Shown here: positions 51 through 36,994 of the stretch, one piece after another
How the letters are laid out: each line of letters opens with the position of its first letter
Position numbering within the stretch: the stretch's first letter is position 1
Assembly (NCBI GenBank): GCA_016649875.1
Contig: JAENWW010000002.1
Location: 1-64,000, forward strand
Source: Coriobacteriia bacterium
Lineage (GTDB): Bacteria > Actinomycetota > Coriobacteriia > WRKU01 > JAENWW01
Length of the DNA stretch: 64,000 nucleotides
Direction: 5' to 3'
Program-made: the position numbers and the translations under genes
Notes under the pieces: generated by a model
The model's database searches: none
What the model saw: only the letters and a program-made list of their open reading frames with translations
What the model was told of the DNA's origin: nothing

Positions 51-203
51 ATTTGTCAAAGTTGCAAGTACTGCCTAAAGTCAACGGAAATAATGGCATT
101 TGAGGGCAGGATGCGACACAAATGGCGGGAAAAGGGCAGGAGGCAAGGTCTCTGCATAGCAGTGTTATCATTCATACATTGAAACGATTCTGTGGGAGGA
201 TGT

Positions 204-1163
204 ATGGAGCAAGCTGATAGTCCGATACTAAATATCGAAGAGCAGATTAAACACCTTAGAAGTAAGAATGTGAATTTCTATATTTGTTCCGAAAAAGATG
301 CGCTACAGTATCTTTCAAAAAATAATAATTACTTTAAGCTGCGTGCATATCGAACGGGATTCGAAAAATATCTCGAAGGTAAAAATAAAGGGAAATATAT
401 TGATTTAGATTTTGGGAAATTGCAGGATCTTGCCATTATCGATATGGAACTACGTTACTTGCTGTTACATATGACTCTTGATGTTGAGCATTTTGCGAAA
501 GTGCGGCTCTTAAAACTAATAAGTGACAAAGGGGAAGACGGGTACTCGATTGTCAAAGACTACATTAATAGTCTTGACGATACGAGCAAAAATATACTAA
601 TTGGCGGTTTGAAGCGACAAGAAGATAGCTGTTATTGCGGCGGCATCGCGACTAAATTTTCTGGCAACTATCCCGTATGGGCTTTTTTGGAGATAATATC
701 GTTTGGAACGTTAGTCCATTTCTATAGATTTTGCTGGAAAAGATTCGACAGCGACAGTTTAAAAAGTGAACATTTTTTATTACTTGGGGTGAAAAGTTTG
801 CGAAATGCCGCAGCGCATAATAGCTGCGTGATTAATGATTTGAGCCCAGGTAAGCCGCCCTTCAAAACCCATGATTTAGTTACGCGGGCATTGGCTAAAG
901 TTGGGCTAACGCCAGATTCGCGCATAAAGAAAATGAGTAATACAAAGATTCAACATATAGTGACATTATTGTTTGCTCATACATACTTTGTTGCAAGTGA
1001 CGGGGTACAGCAACATGTGAGCCGAAGTCTGCAATTGGTTACTACTAGGATGTTTAGAAATATAGATTATTATGAAAAAAATGAAACCATTAGCACCAGC
1101 TTTCTCTTTATAAAAACTGTCATTGACAAGTGGTTCCCAAATACGGATAATAAGAGCACATAA
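204..1163 (+). CDS. Abi family (Abi_2/AbiD-AbiF type) abortive-infection protein with HEPN motif
   Basis: A 319-residue protein of the Abi family, which in lactococci and other bacteria is linked to abortive phage resistance. The N-terminal signature is visible as YLSKNNNYFKLRAYR at about 36-50, and the family block PVWAFLEIISFGTLVHFY lies at about 157-174. An R-N-A-A-A-H motif at residues 200-205 fits the R-x4-6-H active site of HEPN ribonucleases. RNase activity is therefore an inference from family and motif. I chose the ATG at 204 because GGGAGGA lies just upstream; a GTG at 192 is also in frame. It is A+T rich compared with the rest of the window. No partner antitoxin is visible; downstream lie only decayed integrase and rhuM pieces, so it looks like the surviving gene of a mobile defence patch. 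Confidence 0.8.
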   Translation: MEQADSPILNIEEQIKHLRSKNVNFYICSEKDALQYLSKNNNYFKLRAYRTGFEKYLEGKNKGKYIDLDFGKLQDLAIIDMELRYLLLHMTLDVEHFAKVRLLKLISDKGEDGYSIVKDYINSLDDTSKNILIGGLKRQEDSCYCGGIATKFSGNYPVWAFLEIISFGTLVHFYRFCWKRFDSDSLKSEHFLLLGVKSLRNAAAHNSCVINDLSPGKPPFKTHDLVTRALAKVGLTPDSRIKKMSNTKIQHIVTLLFAHTYFVASDGVQQHVSRSLQLVTTRMFRNIDYYEKNETISTSFLFIKTVIDKWFPNTDNKST

Positions 1164-5657: not shown

Positions 5658-5686
5658 TTGACGGTTTTGTTGTCTGGATTTATACT
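5658..5686 (+). promoter_or_regulatory. Sigma-A type promoter of the AbiE-like pair, leaderless
   Basis: TTGACG (5658-5663), 17-bp spacer, TATACT (5681-5686). The first ATG is at 5694, only 7 nt after the -10 box, so transcription would begin at or next to the start codon, and no ribosome binding site is visible. This predicts a leaderless mRNA. Confidence 0.65.
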
Positions 5687-5724
5687 ATTGTGCATGATGA
5701 ACAACACGGCATATCCAGACAACA
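5668..5724. promoter_or_regulatory. Inverted-repeat operator over the AbiE-like promoter and start codon
   Basis: Perfect 12-bp arms TGTTGTCTGGAT (5668-5679) and ATCCAGACAACA (5713-5724) are centred near the -10 box and ATG, 33 bp apart. The left arm fills most of the -35/-10 spacer. AbiEi proteins are known to bind inverted repeats in their own promoter and repress it; that this pair does so is inferred. Confidence 0.6.
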
Positions 5725-6785
5725 CCCCAACACCGATCGAGGTGCAGAAACGGCTGCAGGAACAGCTACCCCACACGTGGCGAGTTTGCCTTCTTGGGCG
5801 GGTTGAGAATCAGCGAGGTCCCGACGCTGTGTTGGAGGTCCAAACCCCTGACAGCCGGCGCATAAGGATATTCGTCAAGATTATGCGTCGACTGGAGCCA
5901 GCCGTCGTGCCTCGTGTGGTTGAACAGATGCGGTCGTGGGTCGACTCGTCAGCGATGGAAAAACCAATGGGGGAATTTCTTGTGGCGGCACCCTACTTGA
6001 GCGAACGCACTCGTGAGAAGCTACGCGATAGCGACCTCAACTACCTGGACTTCACGGGCAACAGTTATGTGACTATCGAAAAACCTGTTGTTTGCATACG
6101 TACGCAGGGAGCTTCGAAGGACCCCGACAAGTCATCTCGACCGATGCGGTCTCTGCGTGGAATCAAGACGGCCAAGATTGTGCGCACTCTGGTGGATCTC
6201 CGCCTGCCCTTGGGAGTCCGACAGATTGCTGAATTTGCAAAGACGGACCCCGGGAATGTTTCCCGTGTGCTCAATCTTCTTGGACGCGAGGATTTGGTTC
6301 AGCGGAGTTCGCGGGGGGGCGTTCAGCAGGTCGATTGGAACGGGTTGCTCAGGGCATGGTCTCGCGATTACTCAATGATCGGTTCGAATAGGTATTACAT
6401 GTATCTCGACCCTCGCGGACTCGGAAATTTCCTTTCGCGGTTGCAGACACTCCCAACCGGTATGCGCTATGCGGTAACGGGCTCCCTCGCTGCGGCACGA
6501 CTGGCACCTGTGGCTCCTGCAAGGTTGGGGGTCGCTTTTGTCGACGATGCAGCAACTGCTGCCGACTCCCTGGGGCTGGTGCCAGCCGAAACGGGCGCGA
6601 ATGTAATGCTTTTGGTACCCAGAGGTGACTTCGTCTTCGATAGAGTGAGGATTGATGAAGGGGTGCGGTACGTCGCTCCCAGCCAAGCGGTTGTTGATCT
6701 GCTTACGGGCTCGGGTCGCAATCCATCAGAGGCTGAGGAGCTCTTGGACTGGATGAGAAGGAACGAGAATGTCTGGAGAACTTAG
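5694..6785 (+). CDS. AbiEi-like antitoxin/transcriptional regulator (type IV TA family)
   Basis: About 363 residues from the ATG at 5694 (a second ATG follows directly at 5697). The N-terminal about 115 residues are unassigned. A helix-turn-helix is visible in the middle, at about 150-200 (IKTAKIVRTLVDL, RQIAEFAKTDPGNVSRVLNL). It is followed by a segment with YAVTGSLAAARLAP and a C-terminal part ending in EELLDWMRRNE, as in AbiEi-like regulators placed upstream of AbiEii nucleotidyltransferases. The downstream gene overlaps by 17 nt, which fits a coupled antitoxin-toxin pair. The internal position of the helix-turn-helix differs from the classic N-terminal winged helix of lactococcal AbiEi, so the subfamily assignment is tentative. 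It probably represses its own promoter through the inverted repeat at 5668-5724. Confidence 0.65.
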   Translation: MMNNTAYPDNTPTPIEVQKRLQEQLPHTWRVCLLGRVENQRGPDAVLEVQTPDSRRIRIFVKIMRRLEPAVVPRVVEQMRSWVDSSAMEKPMGEFLVAAPYLSERTREKLRDSDLNYLDFTGNSYVTIEKPVVCIRTQGASKDPDKSSRPMRSLRGIKTAKIVRTLVDLRLPLGVRQIAEFAKTDPGNVSRVLNLLGREDLVQRSSRGGVQQVDWNGLLRAWSRDYSMIGSNRYYMYLDPRGLGNFLSRLQTLPTGMRYAVTGSLAAARLAPVAPARLGVAFVDDAATAADSLGLVPAETGANVMLLVPRGDFVFDRVRIDEGVRYVAPSQAVVDLLTGSGRNPSEAEELLDWMRRNENVWRT

Positions 6786-7641
6786 CCAAGAATATGTCGT
6801 TGCGCGTCAAGCGCTACTGGATGCCCTAGAGGCGTTTGGCCCTCAGCGGGTAGCCGTGGTGCTTGTCGGGGCGCAGGCAATCTACCTGCATACCGGGAAT
6901 GCCGGTCTTGCGGTTGCTGAATCCACCACGGATGCGGACGTCGCTTTTGATCCTTCGTGGCTCGTCGAAGACCCTGTATTGGCTGTGGCTATGAGAGAAG
7001 CTGGGTTCTTCCGTGAGGAGAACGGAAGCGGGATTCCTGTTGGCACCTGGTCATCCCTGCGGGTGATATCCGGCGTGTCAGCTGTAGTGAAAGTGGATCT
7101 TCTAGTTCCCGCGGTACTGGGAGGTGGCGGTAGACGCGCAGCAAGGATCGAGGGTCAGGAACTGGGCTCAGTGCTCAAAGTGTCTGGGATTGAAGGCTGT
7201 CTGGTTGACTGCGAGATCCACACCATCTCCTCGTTTGACCCAGCCGATAATCGTTCGTTCGAGATAAAGGTGGCGGGTTCGGCCTCACTGTTGGTCGCAA
7301 AGGTCATTAAGCTTAATGAGCGAGAAAATCAAGCAGCGACTGGTCGCGACAGACGAAAGTACAAAGATGCTCTCGATGTGCTGCGGCTACTTCGTGCGGT
7401 GAAGATTGAGGAGTTGGTCGATGGTCTCAGACGGCTCTTAGGCAACGAGTTGTCGAAGGACGTAACTGAAACGGCAATTGACGCGCTTCCGAGACTCTTC
7501 GGCGACCCTGATAGCCCTGCCAGTCTGATGGCTGGTGAGGCGGCTGCGCCGGCGGAACCAGCCGACGTGATTGCCAGTTCATGCGCAGCGTTGGTTGGAG
7601 AGTTGATCGAGACTCTCGGTGAGGCTGGTTTGACAGCGTGA
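6769..7641 (+). CDS. AbiEii/AbiGii-family nucleotidyltransferase (toxin)
   Basis: 290 residues with a minimal nucleotidyltransferase fold. The nucleotide-binding part is VLVGAQAIYLHTG at about 31-43 and the metal-binding D55-A-D57 is in TTDADVAF. A conserved helix, KVIKLNERENQ followed by YKDALDVLRLLR, lies at about 180-207. AbiEii toxins modify an intracellular target by NMP or NTP transfer, with tRNA shown for related toxins; the target here is unknown. The ATG at 6769 follows AAGGA and overlaps the upstream gene by 17 nt. It is the last gene in the island before the right repeat. Confidence 0.72.
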   Translation: MSGELSQEYVVARQALLDALEAFGPQRVAVVLVGAQAIYLHTGNAGLAVAESTTDADVAFDPSWLVEDPVLAVAMREAGFFREENGSGIPVGTWSSLRVISGVSAVVKVDLLVPAVLGGGGRRAARIEGQELGSVLKVSGIEGCLVDCEIHTISSFDPADNRSFEIKVAGSASLLVAKVIKLNERENQAATGRDRRKYKDALDVLRLLRAVKIEELVDGLRRLLGNELSKDVTETAIDALPRLFGDPDSPASLMAGEAAAPAEPADVIASSCAALVGELIETLGEAGLTA

Positions 7642-33136: not shown

Positions 33137-33159
33137 AAAACCCCGCCTCCTCGGGGGTT
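33137..33159 (-). terminator. Terminator of the pepO operon
   Basis: On the minus strand AACCCC(C)...GGGGTT forms a 6-7 bp stem with a short loop, then TTTTACT. It lies just after the pepO stop codon. Confidence 0.6.
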
Positions 33160-33172
33160 GCACAGCTTCGAC

Positions 33173-35131
33173 CTACCAGATATGGGCTCGTAGCGATTCT
33201 GGACGTCTCATGGCGGAGCCTTCCGGAATGTCGAACGCCTCGGCAAACGCCGGGGTGTTGGAAAGCGGTGCATTCACGCGAAACCGTGCAGGAGAATGCG
33301 GGTCGATATTGACGAGCAGGCGCGCGTATTCATCGGTGTAATTCATGTGCCAAACGGTCGCCCATGCCATGAAGAATCGTTGCCGGGGAGTGAAGCCGTC
33401 AATCGGTTCGCCCGTGTCGCCTCCGACATCGCGCAGCGCGACAAGCGCGAGCGAAAGGCCGCCCAAATCCGCTATGTTTTCGCCCAATGTGAGGCGGCCG
33501 TTGACATGCAGGTCGTCGACGACTCCATAGGCGTCGAACTGGTCGACGAGCACGTGGGCACGACGATCGAATTCGAGGCGGTCACTCTCGGTCCACCAAT
33601 CGCGAAGCGACCCGTTTGTGTCGAAGTGGCTGCCCTGGTCGTCGAAGCCGTGGGTGATTTCATGACCGATGACCGCACCGATTGCGCCGAAGTTTACGGC
33701 ATCGTCGGCATCGGCGTAAAAGAACGGTGGCTGCAAAATGCCGGCGGGAAAAACGATTTCGTTGAGGAGCGGGTGATAGTACGCATTGACCGTATGCGGC
33801 GGCATGGCCCATTCGTTGCGATTGACAGGTTGCCCGAGGCGGCCGATTTGGCGGTCGTGCTCGAAAGCGGCGCAGCGCATGCGATTTTCGGCATACGATG
33901 TCCGACCGACGGTAAGCCCCGAGTAATCTTTCCACGTGTCGGGAAATCCGATTTTATATTTGAAATCCGCGAGCTTCTCAAGCCCTTTTGGCTTGGTGTC
34001 CTCAGACATCCACTCGGCGTTTCGAATCGAGTCGCCCATCGCCGAAAGCAGACGGTCGACCATATGTTCGCAGCGACTCTTCGATTCTGCGGAGAACGCT
34101 TCATCGACATAGAGTTGCGAAACGAGTTCTCCGAGGTCTGTGCTCATCGCGTCGAGGATCCGCTTCCATCGCGGGCGCATTTTTTTCTGTCCGCCCAAAG
34201 TGCGTCCGTAAAAGTCGAACGATTCTTGTTCAAACTCGGCGGGCAGGGCGGAGGCGTAGGCACGAATGAGATTCCAGCGCAGATAATCGCGCACGGTGCT
34301 CAAAGGGGCTTCGTCAAGTGTCGCTTGAAGACCGGTGAAGAACCCCGGATTGTCGATGCATACTGTCGTAACAGATGGGCTGAGCGCGGTGATGAGTGCC
34401 GTGAGCTTGAGCGTCGGCATCAAATCGTCGAGTGCGGATACCTCATAACGATTCATGGTGAGTTGAACGTCGCGCATTTTCTCGGCAGGATAGGAAACTT
34501 GTGCCAGGCGGGTTTCGAAAGCGACGATACGCTTTGCCGCGTCGGCCGCACTTTCTTGCGAATCGCCGAGATTCGTCAGTTGGCGTGCGATATGCGCCTC
34601 GTACGCTTCACGAAGCTGCAGGGAACGCTCATCGTCGCGAATATAGTAATCGCGTTCGGGTAGTCCGGTTCCGCCTTGTCCGACGTAGAGCAGATACGCG
34701 TCTGCATTCTCGAAATCAGGAGCTATACCGATATCCATGAGCGGGCCGACGCCGATTCTGTTCAGTTCGACCACGACCGCGCGCACATCTTCGAGTGAAC
34801 TGAGAGAGGATATCCGTGCGAGGAATTCGTCGAGTGGCGTTGTTCCCGCTTGCGAAATCGACGCCTCATCCATGGCGGAGGAAAAGTAGTCACCGGTCAT
34901 CTGCGATGCCGTGCCGTTCGCAGGGGAGTTTTCGGCGGCATCGTTTAACAGGCGATGCAAAATATCAAGGTTCCGCTCGTTGACTTCATTGAAAGCGCCC
35001 CACGAACCGTAGGCGGGCGGCACGGGATTTTCGACCGACCAGCCACCGTTCACATAACCGAAGAAGTCATCTGCCGGAGAGATCTCGGGATCGAAAAATG
35101 CAGGGTCGAGAGGATACAAGCTGTTTTTCAT
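33173..35131 (-). CDS. pepO: M13-family zinc metalloendopeptidase (PepO type)
   Basis: 652 residues, full length for the neprilysin/PepO family. Zinc site VIGHEITHGFDDQG (H-E-x-x-H) and the downstream third ligand in LGENIADLGG. The N-terminus DPAFFDPEISPADDFFGYVNGGW is typical. There is no signal peptide or membrane anchor, so it is cytoplasmic, degrading oligopeptides. The start codon overlaps the stop of the upstream nucleotidyltransferase gene by 4 nt (ATGA), an unusual partner. Confidence 0.93.
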   Translation of the reverse strand: MKNSLYPLDPAFFDPEISPADDFFGYVNGGWSVENPVPPAYGSWGAFNEVNERNLDILHRLLNDAAENSPANGTASQMTGDYFSSAMDEASISQAGTTPLDEFLARISSLSSLEDVRAVVVELNRIGVGPLMDIGIAPDFENADAYLLYVGQGGTGLPERDYYIRDDERSLQLREAYEAHIARQLTNLGDSQESAADAAKRIVAFETRLAQVSYPAEKMRDVQLTMNRYEVSALDDLMPTLKLTALITALSPSVTTVCIDNPGFFTGLQATLDEAPLSTVRDYLRWNLIRAYASALPAEFEQESFDFYGRTLGGQKKMRPRWKRILDAMSTDLGELVSQLYVDEAFSAESKSRCEHMVDRLLSAMGDSIRNAEWMSEDTKPKGLEKLADFKYKIGFPDTWKDYSGLTVGRTSYAENRMRCAAFEHDRQIGRLGQPVNRNEWAMPPHTVNAYYHPLLNEIVFPAGILQPPFFYADADDAVNFGAIGAVIGHEITHGFDDQGSHFDTNGSLRDWWTESDRLEFDRRAHVLVDQFDAYGVVDDLHVNGRLTLGENIADLGGLSLALVALRDVGGDTGEPIDGFTPRQRFFMAWATVWHMNYTDEYARLLVNIDPHSPARFRVNAPLSNTPAFAEAFDIPEGSAMRRPESLRAHIW

Positions 35132-35685
35132 TGAGATAGTCCTCGATTCACGTGGGTTTTTAAGCGTTCGATGACCGCTGGGTCGATAGTTTCTTTAGTG
35201 CTCCATTTATTTAGGGCTTCCCAGTCGATTTTGTTCTTCCGGGCAATGGCGATAGCTTGATCGAAGGACTGGTTATCTGTCCAATGAACGTAGGCCGCGA
35301 TGCGATCCATTATGCTTTGTGTCGGGGTCACAATTCTTAGCGTCCCGTAGTCGGTGTGTATGAGGTGCATATCTTGTTCAAGAATGACGGTTTCGCCGAA
35401 AGAAAGTGGACCAGGAGGGAACTCAAGATAATATTCCGAGTCAGGATGTTCGAACTGCCTAGTTCTGATGACTTGATGAAATCCTAAAGGAGCAATCGCA
35501 TCAGCAATGATGGAGTTTCTCTCGCTGGTAACAAAATCGAGGTCGAAACTCATATAGTCATTCATGCTGTAGATTGTTACAGCACCGCCCCCTGAAAGTG
35601 TGGCAATGATGCCGGCCGTCTCAAGTGTTTGGCTGACAATCGCTGCAATTTCTTCCAAAGTGGTTTCCTTGCCAATGGGTGTCAC
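35128..35685 (-). CDS. Nucleotidyltransferase-fold protein (AbiEii/MNT-like)
   Basis: 185 residues from GTG at 35685, two bases after the stop of the winged-helix gene. LSGGGAVTIY at 30-39 and D48-L-D50 in MSFDLDFV are the nucleotide and metal motifs of the minimal nucleotidyltransferase superfamily. C-terminal helices include QSIMDRIAAYVHWTDNQSFDQA. With the upstream regulator it has the architecture of a small toxin-antitoxin pair, although its short length and lack of the C-terminal AbiEii domain leave antitoxin or enzyme roles open. Confidence 0.7.
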   Translation of the reverse strand: MTPIGKETTLEEIAAIVSQTLETAGIIATLSGGGAVTIYSMNDYMSFDLDFVTSERNSIIADAIAPLGFHQVIRTRQFEHPDSEYYLEFPPGPLSFGETVILEQDMHLIHTDYGTLRIVTPTQSIMDRIAAYVHWTDNQSFDQAIAIARKNKIDWEALNKWSTKETIDPAVIERLKTHVNRGLSQ

Positions 35686-35687
35686 CG

Positions 35688-36026
35688 CTATAGCCTCTTT
35701 CCTGTTCGACGGGGCCGTTGTCGCTGACGAAAGTATTTCTTTACTTGGTCGTCGGGGAGAAGGTCAAGCTCGCGTGCAAGGGATTGGCGAAGATTTCTCA
35801 CTGAAGGGTTTCGATCGTTGAATTCAAAGACGCGGGTTTTTCCGACGGTGCGACTGACCAACACTCCGCTTGCCTCAAGCCGAATGAGCTGTCGGTAAAT
35901 GCTTGTCTGCTGTGTATCAAATATGGTCGCAATTCGGGAAGCGTATCCGGAACCGTATGCTTGGATGAAAAGCAAAACTTGTGCGGCGGCTCTATTTCCG
36001 TAAATTCCCTCTAATATCGGTGTCAT
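35688..36026 (-). CDS. Small winged-helix transcriptional regulator
   Basis: 112 residues. A MarR/ArsR-like winged helix spans about 8-75 (RAAAQVLLFIQAYGSGYASR, TQQTSIYRQLIRLEASGVLV, GKTRVFEFND), then a basic tail KKYFRQRQRPRRTGKRL. AAAGGACTCC precedes the ATG at 36026. It is first gene of a three-gene unit with the nucleotidyltransferase and pepO. Two palindromes in its promoter suggest it represses itself. Confidence 0.75.
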   Translation of the reverse strand: MTPILEGIYGNRAAAQVLLFIQAYGSGYASRIATIFDTQQTSIYRQLIRLEASGVLVSRTVGKTRVFEFNDRNPSVRNLRQSLARELDLLPDDQVKKYFRQRQRPRRTGKRL

Positions 36027-36050
36027 GACGGAGTCCTTTCGTTAATGTTG

Positions 36051-36093
36051 ATATTAACACATATTGTGTTTATATCAACACGTTATGTGTTAA
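36051..36093 (-). promoter_or_regulatory. Promoter with two palindromic operators for the winged-helix unit
   Basis: On the minus strand TTGATA (36073-36078) and TAATAT (36051-36056) are 16 bp apart. Two near-palindromes with AACAC...GTGTT arms lie at 36054-36072 and 36075-36093, 21 bp centre to centre (two helical turns). The first lies between -35 and -10 and the second covers -35. Confidence 0.55.
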
Positions 36094-36295: not shown

Positions 36296-36994
36296 ATGTT
36301 TTTATTTATTTTGGTAATCTTCGCTATTCTTATTCCTCCTATGGTGTGGATGCTGATATTTTTCCTCGGATATAGGGATACAATTTATCGGCGCGAAACG
36401 GGTGCGCCATGGTTCAAAGTACGTTTCGATAAGGGCGCGCACGGAGAATATCTGAGTTTCCGCAAGTTGGAGAAAGTTCCCGGGCATAAGCGGTTTTTGT
36501 TCAATGTCTATCTACCGACCGATGCGGGCGGAACATCTGAAGTCGATCTCCTCATGATTCACCCGATGGGCATTTTCGTCATCGAATCGAAAAATTATTC
36601 CGGTTGGATATTCGGGAAAGACACCGACAAAATGTGGACGCAATCACTCGAAAACAGACAGAAGAATCGGTTTGCCAATCCTGTATGGCAAAATTCAGGT
36701 CACATCAAGCACCTCAAGGCTAATTTAAAGAGCTACAACGATGTCCCTTATTATAGTTACGTCGTCTTCAGCGAAAAATGCGAACTCAAAAAAATATCCG
36801 TGTCCAAAGAAAACACGTGGGTTCTTCAAAGACAGAACCTTGCGAAAGCGGTGGGGGCGACGGTAAAACAAACTCCACTCGCCCTTTCGTTGGCGGATAT
36901 AGGAAATATCTATGCTGAGCTCAACCAGTACGCGCATGCCACTGCCGCCCAAAAGCAGGCGCATATCGATGCGATACGGGAGAAGGATTACTAG
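36296..36994 (+). CDS. Membrane-anchored NERD-domain protein (nuclease-related)
   Basis: 232 residues. A hydrophobic anchor at about 2-24 is followed by a NERD domain. The restriction-nuclease-like residues are E51, D84 (SEVDLLMI), E97 and K99 (FVIESKNYSG). NERD proteins are predicted nucleases of unknown biological role. GAGGGGGACG lies upstream of the ATG. It stands alone between a 269-bp gap and a terminator. Confidence 0.85.
   Translation: MFLFILVIFAILIPPMVWMLIFFLGYRDTIYRRETGAPWFKVRFDKGAHGEYLSFRKLEKVPGHKRFLFNVYLPTDAGGTSEVDLLMIHPMGIFVIESKNYSGWIFGKDTDKMWTQSLENRQKNRFANPVWQNSGHIKHLKANLKSYNDVPYYSYVVFSEKCELKKISVSKENTWVLQRQNLAKAVGATVKQTPLALSLADIGNIYAELNQYAHATAAQKQAHIDAIREKDY

What the first reader, a model, noticed from the sequence alone, without database searches (positions are those of the whole stretch)
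33173..36093. Winged-helix/nucleotidyltransferase pair coupled by ATGA to an M13 peptidase
The regulator and NTase have a 2-bp gap and paired promoter palindromes, as in self-regulated TA modules, yet the third gene is a large metallopeptidase translationally coupled to the NTase. This is an unusual three-gene unit; it might be a TA inserted in front of pepO or a real three-part system.
Basis: partly seen in the sequence, partly recalled or inferred. Interest (0 to 1): 0.55.

Follow-up and report, generated by a model that had tools for sequence, protein, structure and literature searches.

The report
Self-regulated NTase toxin-antitoxin-like pair
Two small genes found side by side across many phyla of microbes, and here lying directly in front of an unrelated peptidase gene, look like an unclassified toxin-antitoxin switch: a repressor that binds its own promoter and a nucleotide-adding enzyme.

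Summary
The three-gene unit is not a system. The wHTH-NTase pair is a stand-alone module: 511 NTase relatives in one genome collection; of the 80 kept, 77 have the wHTH directly upstream and none has pepO. None of 19 pepO loci outside this genome has the pair. pepO probably sits behind the module by accident of insertion, though it is likely co-transcribed here.

The pair is the finding. The NTase has no Pfam, NCBIfam or PADLOC family, an intact active site, and a fold closest to MenT1 and aminoglycoside NTases. The wHTH ends in a near-invariant RxRPRRxGKxL tail. Two 15-bp palindromes exactly 21 bp apart recur across phyla (22 of 76 promoters; 0.8 expected). Recognition-helix residue 45 covaries with operator base 5, which argues strongly that each wHTH binds its own promoter. 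Carriage on plasmids and phage contigs, and lone wHTHs but almost no lone NTases, fit a toxin-antitoxin module of the AbiE/MenAT kind. Toxicity and substrate are untested.

The parts
35688..36026 (-). wHTH repressor / presumed antitoxin, 112 aa, ArsR/MarR-like fold with C-terminal tail RQRPRRTGKRL
   Evidence: ORF; conserved partner; read-through model and its Foldseek matches; tail counts
35128..35685 (-). Nucleotidyltransferase, 185 aa (presumed toxin); GG32-33, S46-x-D48-L-D50, E88, D127-R128, D137, Q143
   Evidence: ORF; alignment and column counts; AlphaFold2 model pLDDT 96.5; fold matches
36056..36070 (.). Start-proximal operator palindrome AACACAATATGTGTT (minus-strand reading)
36077..36091 (.). 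Distal operator palindrome AACACATAACGTGTT (minus-strand reading), 21 bp from the first
36051..36078 (-). Promoter-like site TTGATA-16-TAATAT overlapping the palindromes (candidate only: site count at chance level)
33173..35131 (-). M13 zinc metallopeptidase (PepO-like), ATGA-overlapped by the NTase gene; neighbour, not part of the conserved module
33141..33156 (-). Terminator-like hairpin after pepO, likely end of the local transcript
   Evidence: terminator-like sites in the region: 6 found, shuffle mean 4.3

Best explanation
The wHTH-NTase pair is a mobile, self-repressing two-gene toxin-antitoxin-like module. The wHTH binds two 15-bp palindromes 21 bp apart over its own promoter and shuts the operon off (strongly inferred from covariation). 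The NTase is a catalytically intact MenT1-like enzyme that, when free, probably transfers nucleotides to an RNA target such as the tRNA 3' end and stops growth (inferred from fold only). The wHTH probably also neutralises it, perhaps with its near-invariant basic tail, and Ser46 beside the DxD motif may be an inhibitory autophosphorylation site as in MenT1/MenT3 (inferred). In this genome the module lies directly in front of pepO, so that the NTase stop codon falls in pepO's ATGA; pepO is probably carried along on the transcript and has no part in the module.
For: Pairing: wHTH directly upstream in 77 of 80 NTase loci; spacing -17 to +5 bp in 74 of 75 measured pairs; no recurrent third gene (largest neighbour cluster 3 of 80 loci). 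Operator: 22 of 76 promoters with two palindromes at 21 bp, shuffle mean 0.78. Recognition: residue 45 against base 5 ranks first of 109 columns; after removing sequences at least 90% identical, all 29 informative sites follow R-C, D-G, K/L/N/T-A, Q-T. Catalysis: D48 71/71, D50 69/71, E88 69/71; model pLDDT 96.5; MenT1 Z 12.4 and 12.0. S46 is S in 69 and T in 2 of 71, placed like MenT1 T39 two residues before D41 (passages of PMC11375011). Mobility: plasmids, 3 of 3 matching viral contigs hold both genes, related phage families for both, 18 labelled groups among the 71-row NTase tree, a tandem copy. Asymmetry in the class: 3 of 19 strong wHTHs stand alone (2 more at contig ends); no NTase away from a contig end lacks one (13 of 14 places with wHTH, the other at a contig start).
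Against: No toxicity, rescue, binding or transcript data. The fold is shared almost equally with ANT(2'') and LnuA antibiotic NTases and with 5uvd, so target and toxicity do not follow from it. Two sampled loci keep an intact NTase beside a broken wHTH (L044, L127), though other Leptospira plasmids have both intact. The read-through wHTH-NTase model gives no confident domain arrangement (pTM 0.65) and the tail is poorly ordered (block pLDDT 61 and 71), so nothing shows the tail in the active site. 29 of 76 promoters show no palindrome at the threshold used. No empty site was found to prove insertion.
Confidence: 0.6

Rival explanations
1. A real three-part system: pepO is the effector or the protease that removes the wHTH, and all three genes act together.
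For: ATGA overlap, a plausible Shine-Dalgarno sequence (GAGG) before pepO (sequence), no terminator between the genes and one after pepO.
Against: 0 of 80 NTase loci carry pepO; 0 of 19 pepO loci outside this genome carry the pair; G096 and G088 pepO orthologs (65-66%) stand in unrelated contexts; GC differs (wHTH 0.50, NTase 0.47, pepO 0.57).
Confidence: 0.06
2. The NTase is an antibiotic- or metabolite-modifying enzyme with its own local repressor, not a toxin.
For: ANT(2'')-Ia Z 11.9 and LnuA Z 10.8 lie close to MenT1 Z 12.4; wHTH fold is ArsR/MarR-like, the fold of many ligand-responsive repressors.
Against: Near-obligate overlap with the wHTH, lone wHTHs but almost no lone NTases, plasmid and prophage carriage and spread over many phyla fit TA modules better; no conserved metal-site or ligand-pocket pattern was sought.
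Confidence: 0.2
3. The NTase is the antitoxin or regulator and modifies the wHTH or an unlinked toxin, as MNT modifies HEPN.
For: MNT in HEPN-MNT is an NTase antitoxin (abstracts); the wHTH is homologous to the wHTH of PDC-M05A, filed with a HEPN partner.
Against: No recurrent HEPN or other third gene; no invariant hydroxyl in the tail (T 26, S 18 of 77 at position 108).
Confidence: 0.1
4. A generic self-regulated gene pair with a housekeeping role, neither toxin nor defence.
For: No phenotype known; two loci keep NTase without intact wHTH.
Against: Patchy spread: 13 of 396 class genomes including this one; plasmid and phage carriage; decayed copies.
Confidence: 0.1

Closest known systems
MenAT (MenT1/MenT3 nucleotidyltransferase toxins of Mycobacterium tuberculosis)
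   Same: NTase fold (8an5_B Z 12.4, rmsd 3.9, 159 aligned); Ser/Thr two residues before the first catalytic Asp, as the phosphoacceptor T39/D41 of MenT1; 185 aa, near MenT1 size.
   Different: No sequence match to any MenT chain in profile searches; partner is a 112-aa wHTH with a basic tail, not MenA1; MenAT1 is reported not to autoregulate (passage), this pair almost surely does.
AbiE (AbiEi wHTH antitoxin / AbiEii NTase toxin, type IV TA)
   Same: wHTH gene before NTase gene, self-repression through paired inverted repeats; AbiEi itself matches the read-through wHTH-NTase model (6y8q_A).
   Different: AbiEi has a C-terminal antitoxicity domain that this wHTH lacks; AbiEii Pfam model not matched; AbiE sites are 23-bp repeats 3 bp apart (passage), here 15-bp palindromes 21 bp apart.
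PDC-M05 (candidate defence, NTase plus HEPN)
   Same: wHTH region matches PDC-M05A in 76 of 77 wHTHs.
   Different: Match covers the wHTH only; no HEPN partner; NTase is a separate, larger protein with no PDC-M05 match.
phrog_18520 and phrog_13263
   Same: Near full-length matches to wHTH (E 1e-19) and NTase (E 3.5e-20); likely the same families in phages.
   Different: Listed only as unknown function; no pair or mechanism assigned there.
ANT(2'')-Ia / LnuA antibiotic NTases
   Same: Fold (Z 11.9 and 10.8).
   Different: No sequence match in the profile search at E up to 10 with the wide alignment; a weak LnuA-type hit E 0.35-0.38 with the narrow one.

Membership tests
Toxin-antitoxin module (general) | Two small, tightly linked co-oriented genes kept together across hosts | tested here: met
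   77 of 80 loci; 74 of 75 spacings within -17 to +5 bp
Toxin-antitoxin module (general) | Operon repressed by its own DNA-binding partner | tested here: met
   Computational only: operator and recognition-helix covariation; no binding assay
Toxin-antitoxin module (general) | Toxicity of one product and rescue by the other | not testable with these tools
   Needs expression experiments
AbiE | AbiEii domain (PF08843) in the NTase | tested here: not met
   0 of 71 members match PF08843 at E 0.01; PADLOC AbiEii only E 0.017 and 0.043, one member each of 12
AbiE | Two-domain antitoxin (wHTH plus C-terminal domain) | tested here: not met
   112-aa protein: wHTH, two helices, tail
MenAT | MenT NTase fold with Ser/Thr-x-Asp active site | tested here: met
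   Z 12.4 to 8an5_B; S/T46-x-D48 in 71 of 71
MenAT | Lys137 and Asp152 equivalents of MenT1 | tested here: inconclusive
   R128, D137 and Q143 are invariant, but no residue-level superposition was available
MenAT | Sequence homology to MenT | tested here: not met
   No MenT chain at E up to 10 with A1 or A3 profiles
PDC-M05 / HEPN-MNT | HEPN partner gene | tested here: not met
   No recurrent neighbour besides wHTH and NTase in 80 loci
PDC-M05 / HEPN-MNT | wHTH fused to a minimal NTase (M05A) | tested here: not met
   Separate proteins; PADLOC match of the window wHTH confined to residues 17-83
Antibiotic NTases (ANT/Lnu) | Transfer of a nucleotide to a drug | not testable with these tools
   Fold similarity only
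Peptidase family M13 | Peptidase_M13_N and Peptidase_M13 domains | tested here: met
   E 1.1e-108 and 3.5e-67; the Lactococcus PepO equivalog cut-off is not reached (317.7 of 1000 bits)

The most novel reading that the evidence does not exclude
The pair is an unclassified, cross-phylum TA family in which a small repressor controls a MenT-like NTase twice: by occluding the promoter, and through its near-invariant arginine/proline tail, which acts on the NTase active site (plugging it or driving autophosphorylation of Ser46). It would also be the unfused form of the wHTH-plus-NTase-like architecture seen in AbiEi, so that AbiEi antitoxins descend from such pairs by fusion and loss of catalysis.
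Probability: 0.15. Interest if true: 0.65.

Novelty: new variant of a known kind. Interest (0 to 1): 0.42.

Why it matters
A two-gene module with at least 511 members in one genome collection has an NTase that sits outside Pfam, NCBIfam and PADLOC and is annotated 'hypothetical' in the plasmid records seen. If it is a TA system it adds a compact NTase class between AbiE and MenAT with a readable operator code (residue 45 to base 5), and its near-invariant tail offers a simple test of how a short antitoxin can control an NTase toxin. It also warns that an ATGA-coupled neighbour need not belong to the module.

Tried and rejected
Three-part system: rejected as a conserved unit. PDC-M05 and HEPN-MNT membership: rejected, no HEPN. 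Ribosome-binding-site origin of the GK codons in the tail: not supported for Gly (GGA 18, GGC 17, GGG 14, GGT 14 of 63), while Lys AAG is enriched (53 of 77 against 162 of 379 elsewhere). Active-site plugging by the tail: not supported by the read-through model, which is biased by the direct linkage and 1:1 stoichiometry. Empty-site search: nothing usable (NERD neighbour 0 of 9 relatives; TupA neighbour 3 of 9, not followed). Phage records: no match for the window NTase, and a first viral-contig scan with the single sequence found none; the alignment found three. Promoter assignment: consensus hits at chance level. Residue-level matching of R128/D137/Q143 to MenT1 K137/D152: not possible with the outputs. 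Separation by relatedness: residue 42 against base 4 led in the full set but fell to rank 2, 4 and 12 after clustering at 70, 60 and 50%, so only residue 45 is claimed; at 50% (8 clusters) residue 45 is rank 2. Broken-copy bias (intact wHTH with lost NTase: L033, L053 second copy, L067, L091, L104, L171, L180, L182, L212, L213; intact NTase with broken wHTH: L044, L127) is only suggestive: L212 and L213 were chosen after a wHTH search, and some breaks may be assembly errors. AbiEi evolutionary link: the match covers 285 columns but at rmsd 11.8 and TM 0.33, so it stays a conjecture.
Full report
OBSERVATION. On the minus strand the window holds wHTH 36026..35688, NTase 35685..35128 and an M13 peptidase 35131..33173. 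The gaps are +2 bp and an ATGA overlap. Two 15-bp palindromes lie at 36056-36070 and 36077-36091. Each of wHTH and NTase is single-copy in this 1.41-Mb, 24-contig genome. A terminator-like hairpin follows pepO.

THE PAIR WITHOUT PEPO. The NTase gave matches in 19 of 149 relatives including this genome; the strong ones (E <= 6.5e-48) lie in 13 genomes including this one, six others being distant (E about 1e-4 to 1e-5). In the strong loci the wHTH lies directly upstream where the contig allows. A genome-collection scan found 511 relatives, 80 kept: wHTH in 77 of 80 by profile and PepO in none. Of the three misses, L127 holds a decayed wHTH by profile, L128 shows tail-like residues by eye in a broken frame, and L085 starts at a contig edge. 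Spacing was readable for 75 pairs: 74 lie from -17 to +5 bp, 37 of them ATGA-type -4 overlaps, and one at +38. No third gene recurs: the largest neighbour cluster spans 3 of 80 loci, and only 7 of 80 have a same-strand ORF within 60 bp downstream. In L028/L052 the NTase frame runs on into a 907-908-aa ORF, a second case of the NTase 3' end running into whatever gene follows. L029 carries two copies of the pair, one truncated.

PEPO WITHOUT THE PAIR. pepO is rare in the class: 4 of 149 and 17 of 396, own genome included. In the 19 loci outside this genome (L046-L048, L133-L148) neither wHTH nor NTase was found within about 1.5 kb. The two close orthologs (65-66%) stand behind unrelated genes. 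GC is 0.50 for wHTH, 0.47 for NTase and 0.57 for pepO, window 0.55. So the trio is a local coincidence, most likely insertion of the module in front of pepO. No empty site was found to prove it.

OPERATOR AND ITS READER. Of 76 upstream regions of 120 bp, 47 hold a 15-bp palindrome with at least 6 of 7 pairs (15.2 expected from shuffles). Two palindromes at exactly 21 bp occur in 22 of 76, against a mean of 0.78 (maximum 4) in shuffles and 1 to 7 at other spacings from 15 to 35; 42 bp, twice 21, gives 8. The outer bases are mostly ACC...GGT (36 of 63 palindromes begin with ACC), while the inner bases differ between lineages. In 34 loci with a usable site, wHTH residue 45, in the helix 40-52 of the model, ranks first of 109 columns for base 5 of the half-site. 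In the full set R45 goes with C in 7 of 8, the exception being L077. After removing sequences at least 90% identical, all 29 informative sites follow one rule: R-C 7, D-G 2, K/L/N/T-A 18, Q-T 2. It stays first at 70% and 60% clustering and is second at 50%, with 8 clusters. Relatedness is thus reduced, not removed. This is the strongest evidence that each wHTH binds its own promoter.

THE NTASE. Over 71 members, G32, G33, Y44, D48, G97, P121, D127, R128, D137 and Q143 never change; D50 is 69 of 71, E88 is E in 69 and D in 2, S46 is S in 69 and T in 2. The model has mean pLDDT 96.5. Structural matches: 5uvd Z 13.0, MenT1 12.4 and 12.0, ANT(2'') 11.9, LnuA 10.8, MenT3 about 9.8, AbiEi 9.4. Values within 1 are ties, so fold alone does not decide between toxin and drug-modifying enzyme. 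Pfam links are weak (DUF2204 in 9 of 71, best E 2.5e-5). Passages of PMC11375011 say that MenT1 is phosphorylated at T39, two residues before D41, and MenT3 at S78; S46-x-D48 has the same relation. PMC10435456 (passages) reports that MenT1 modifies tRNA and is blocked by MenA1.

THE WHTH. It matches PDC-M05A over its wHTH in 76 of 77 members; PMC12988326 (passages) describes PDC-M05 as NTase plus HEPN, which this is not. Its tail is the best conserved part: P105, R106 and K110 in 77 of 77, R102 in 76, R104 in 75. The Gly codon of the tail shows no bias, so the conservation is of protein rather than of a ribosome site. The read-through model of wHTH plus NTase (L049) has good domains but pTM 0.65 and a poorly ordered tail.

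MOBILITY AND ASYMMETRY. The NTase lies on 17 plasmid records, 14 of them Leptospira; in one the wHTH gene stands directly beside a ParB-domain gene. All three viral contigs found carry both genes, and both proteins match phage families of unknown function. The NTase tree of 71 rows spans 18 labelled groups and needs 23 label changes where 17 is the least; groups are partly clustered, so inheritance and transfer are probably both at work. In the class search, 19 strong wHTH places divide into 14 with NTase, 2 at contig ends and 3 alone (L171, L180, L182), all three ending in the conserved tail. Of 14 NTase places, 13 have the wHTH beside them and one begins at a contig start. Against this, two loci have an intact NTase and broken wHTH (L044, L127).

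MECHANISM. Shown by sequence: a conserved pair, an intact catalytic centre, an operator tied to the recognition helix. Inferred: repression, toxicity, neutralisation by the wHTH, RNA as target, Ser46 control. Unknown: role of the tail. I put the module reading above 0.9, self-repression near 0.9, toxin-antitoxin near 0.6, tRNA as target near 0.35.

LITERATURE. Searches in the held open-access library listed no paper on this pair by the terms used; most listed papers were seen only as listings. PMC2701414 (passages) treats MNT-HEPN; a search of its text for COG2253, COG4861 and wHTH gave no occurrences. PMC7319586 (passages) gave the AbiE operator geometry. Subscription papers and preprints were not searched, so prior description cannot be excluded.

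Noticed in passing
window 5658-7641 (+): A second HTH plus NTase pair (375 and 290 aa, 17-bp overlap); NTase weakly NTP_transf_8 and AbiEii in Pfam, no PADLOC match. Not a close relative of the pair studied: the own-genome search with the window NTase found only itself.
   Followed up: partly
window 192-1163 (+): AbiD/Abi_2 abortive-infection protein (PADLOC E 8.8e-25, Pfam E 5.3e-23).
   Followed up: partly
window 36296-36994 (+): Single NERD-domain protein (E 1.4e-28) divergent from the pair; no match in 9 close relatives.
   Followed up: partly
L158, L159, L161, L162, L166, L019: Distant NTase relatives carry a MerR-like HTH at their N-terminus and are followed by a small basic protein of about 73-86 aa: possibly another NTase module.
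   Followed up: no
L161 46-1070 (-): A wHTH-minimal-NTase fusion (210 aa) followed by a HEPN-like protein (134 aa), PDC-M05-like, next to one of those distant NTases (read by eye).
   Followed up: no
L052 557-3280 / L028: NTase reading frame continues into a large ORF (907-908 aa), apparently a natural fusion at the module's insertion site.
   Followed up: partly
L211 128-824 (-): A RelE/HigA-like pair stands beside the wHTH-NTase pair in a phage contig (read by eye).
   Followed up: no
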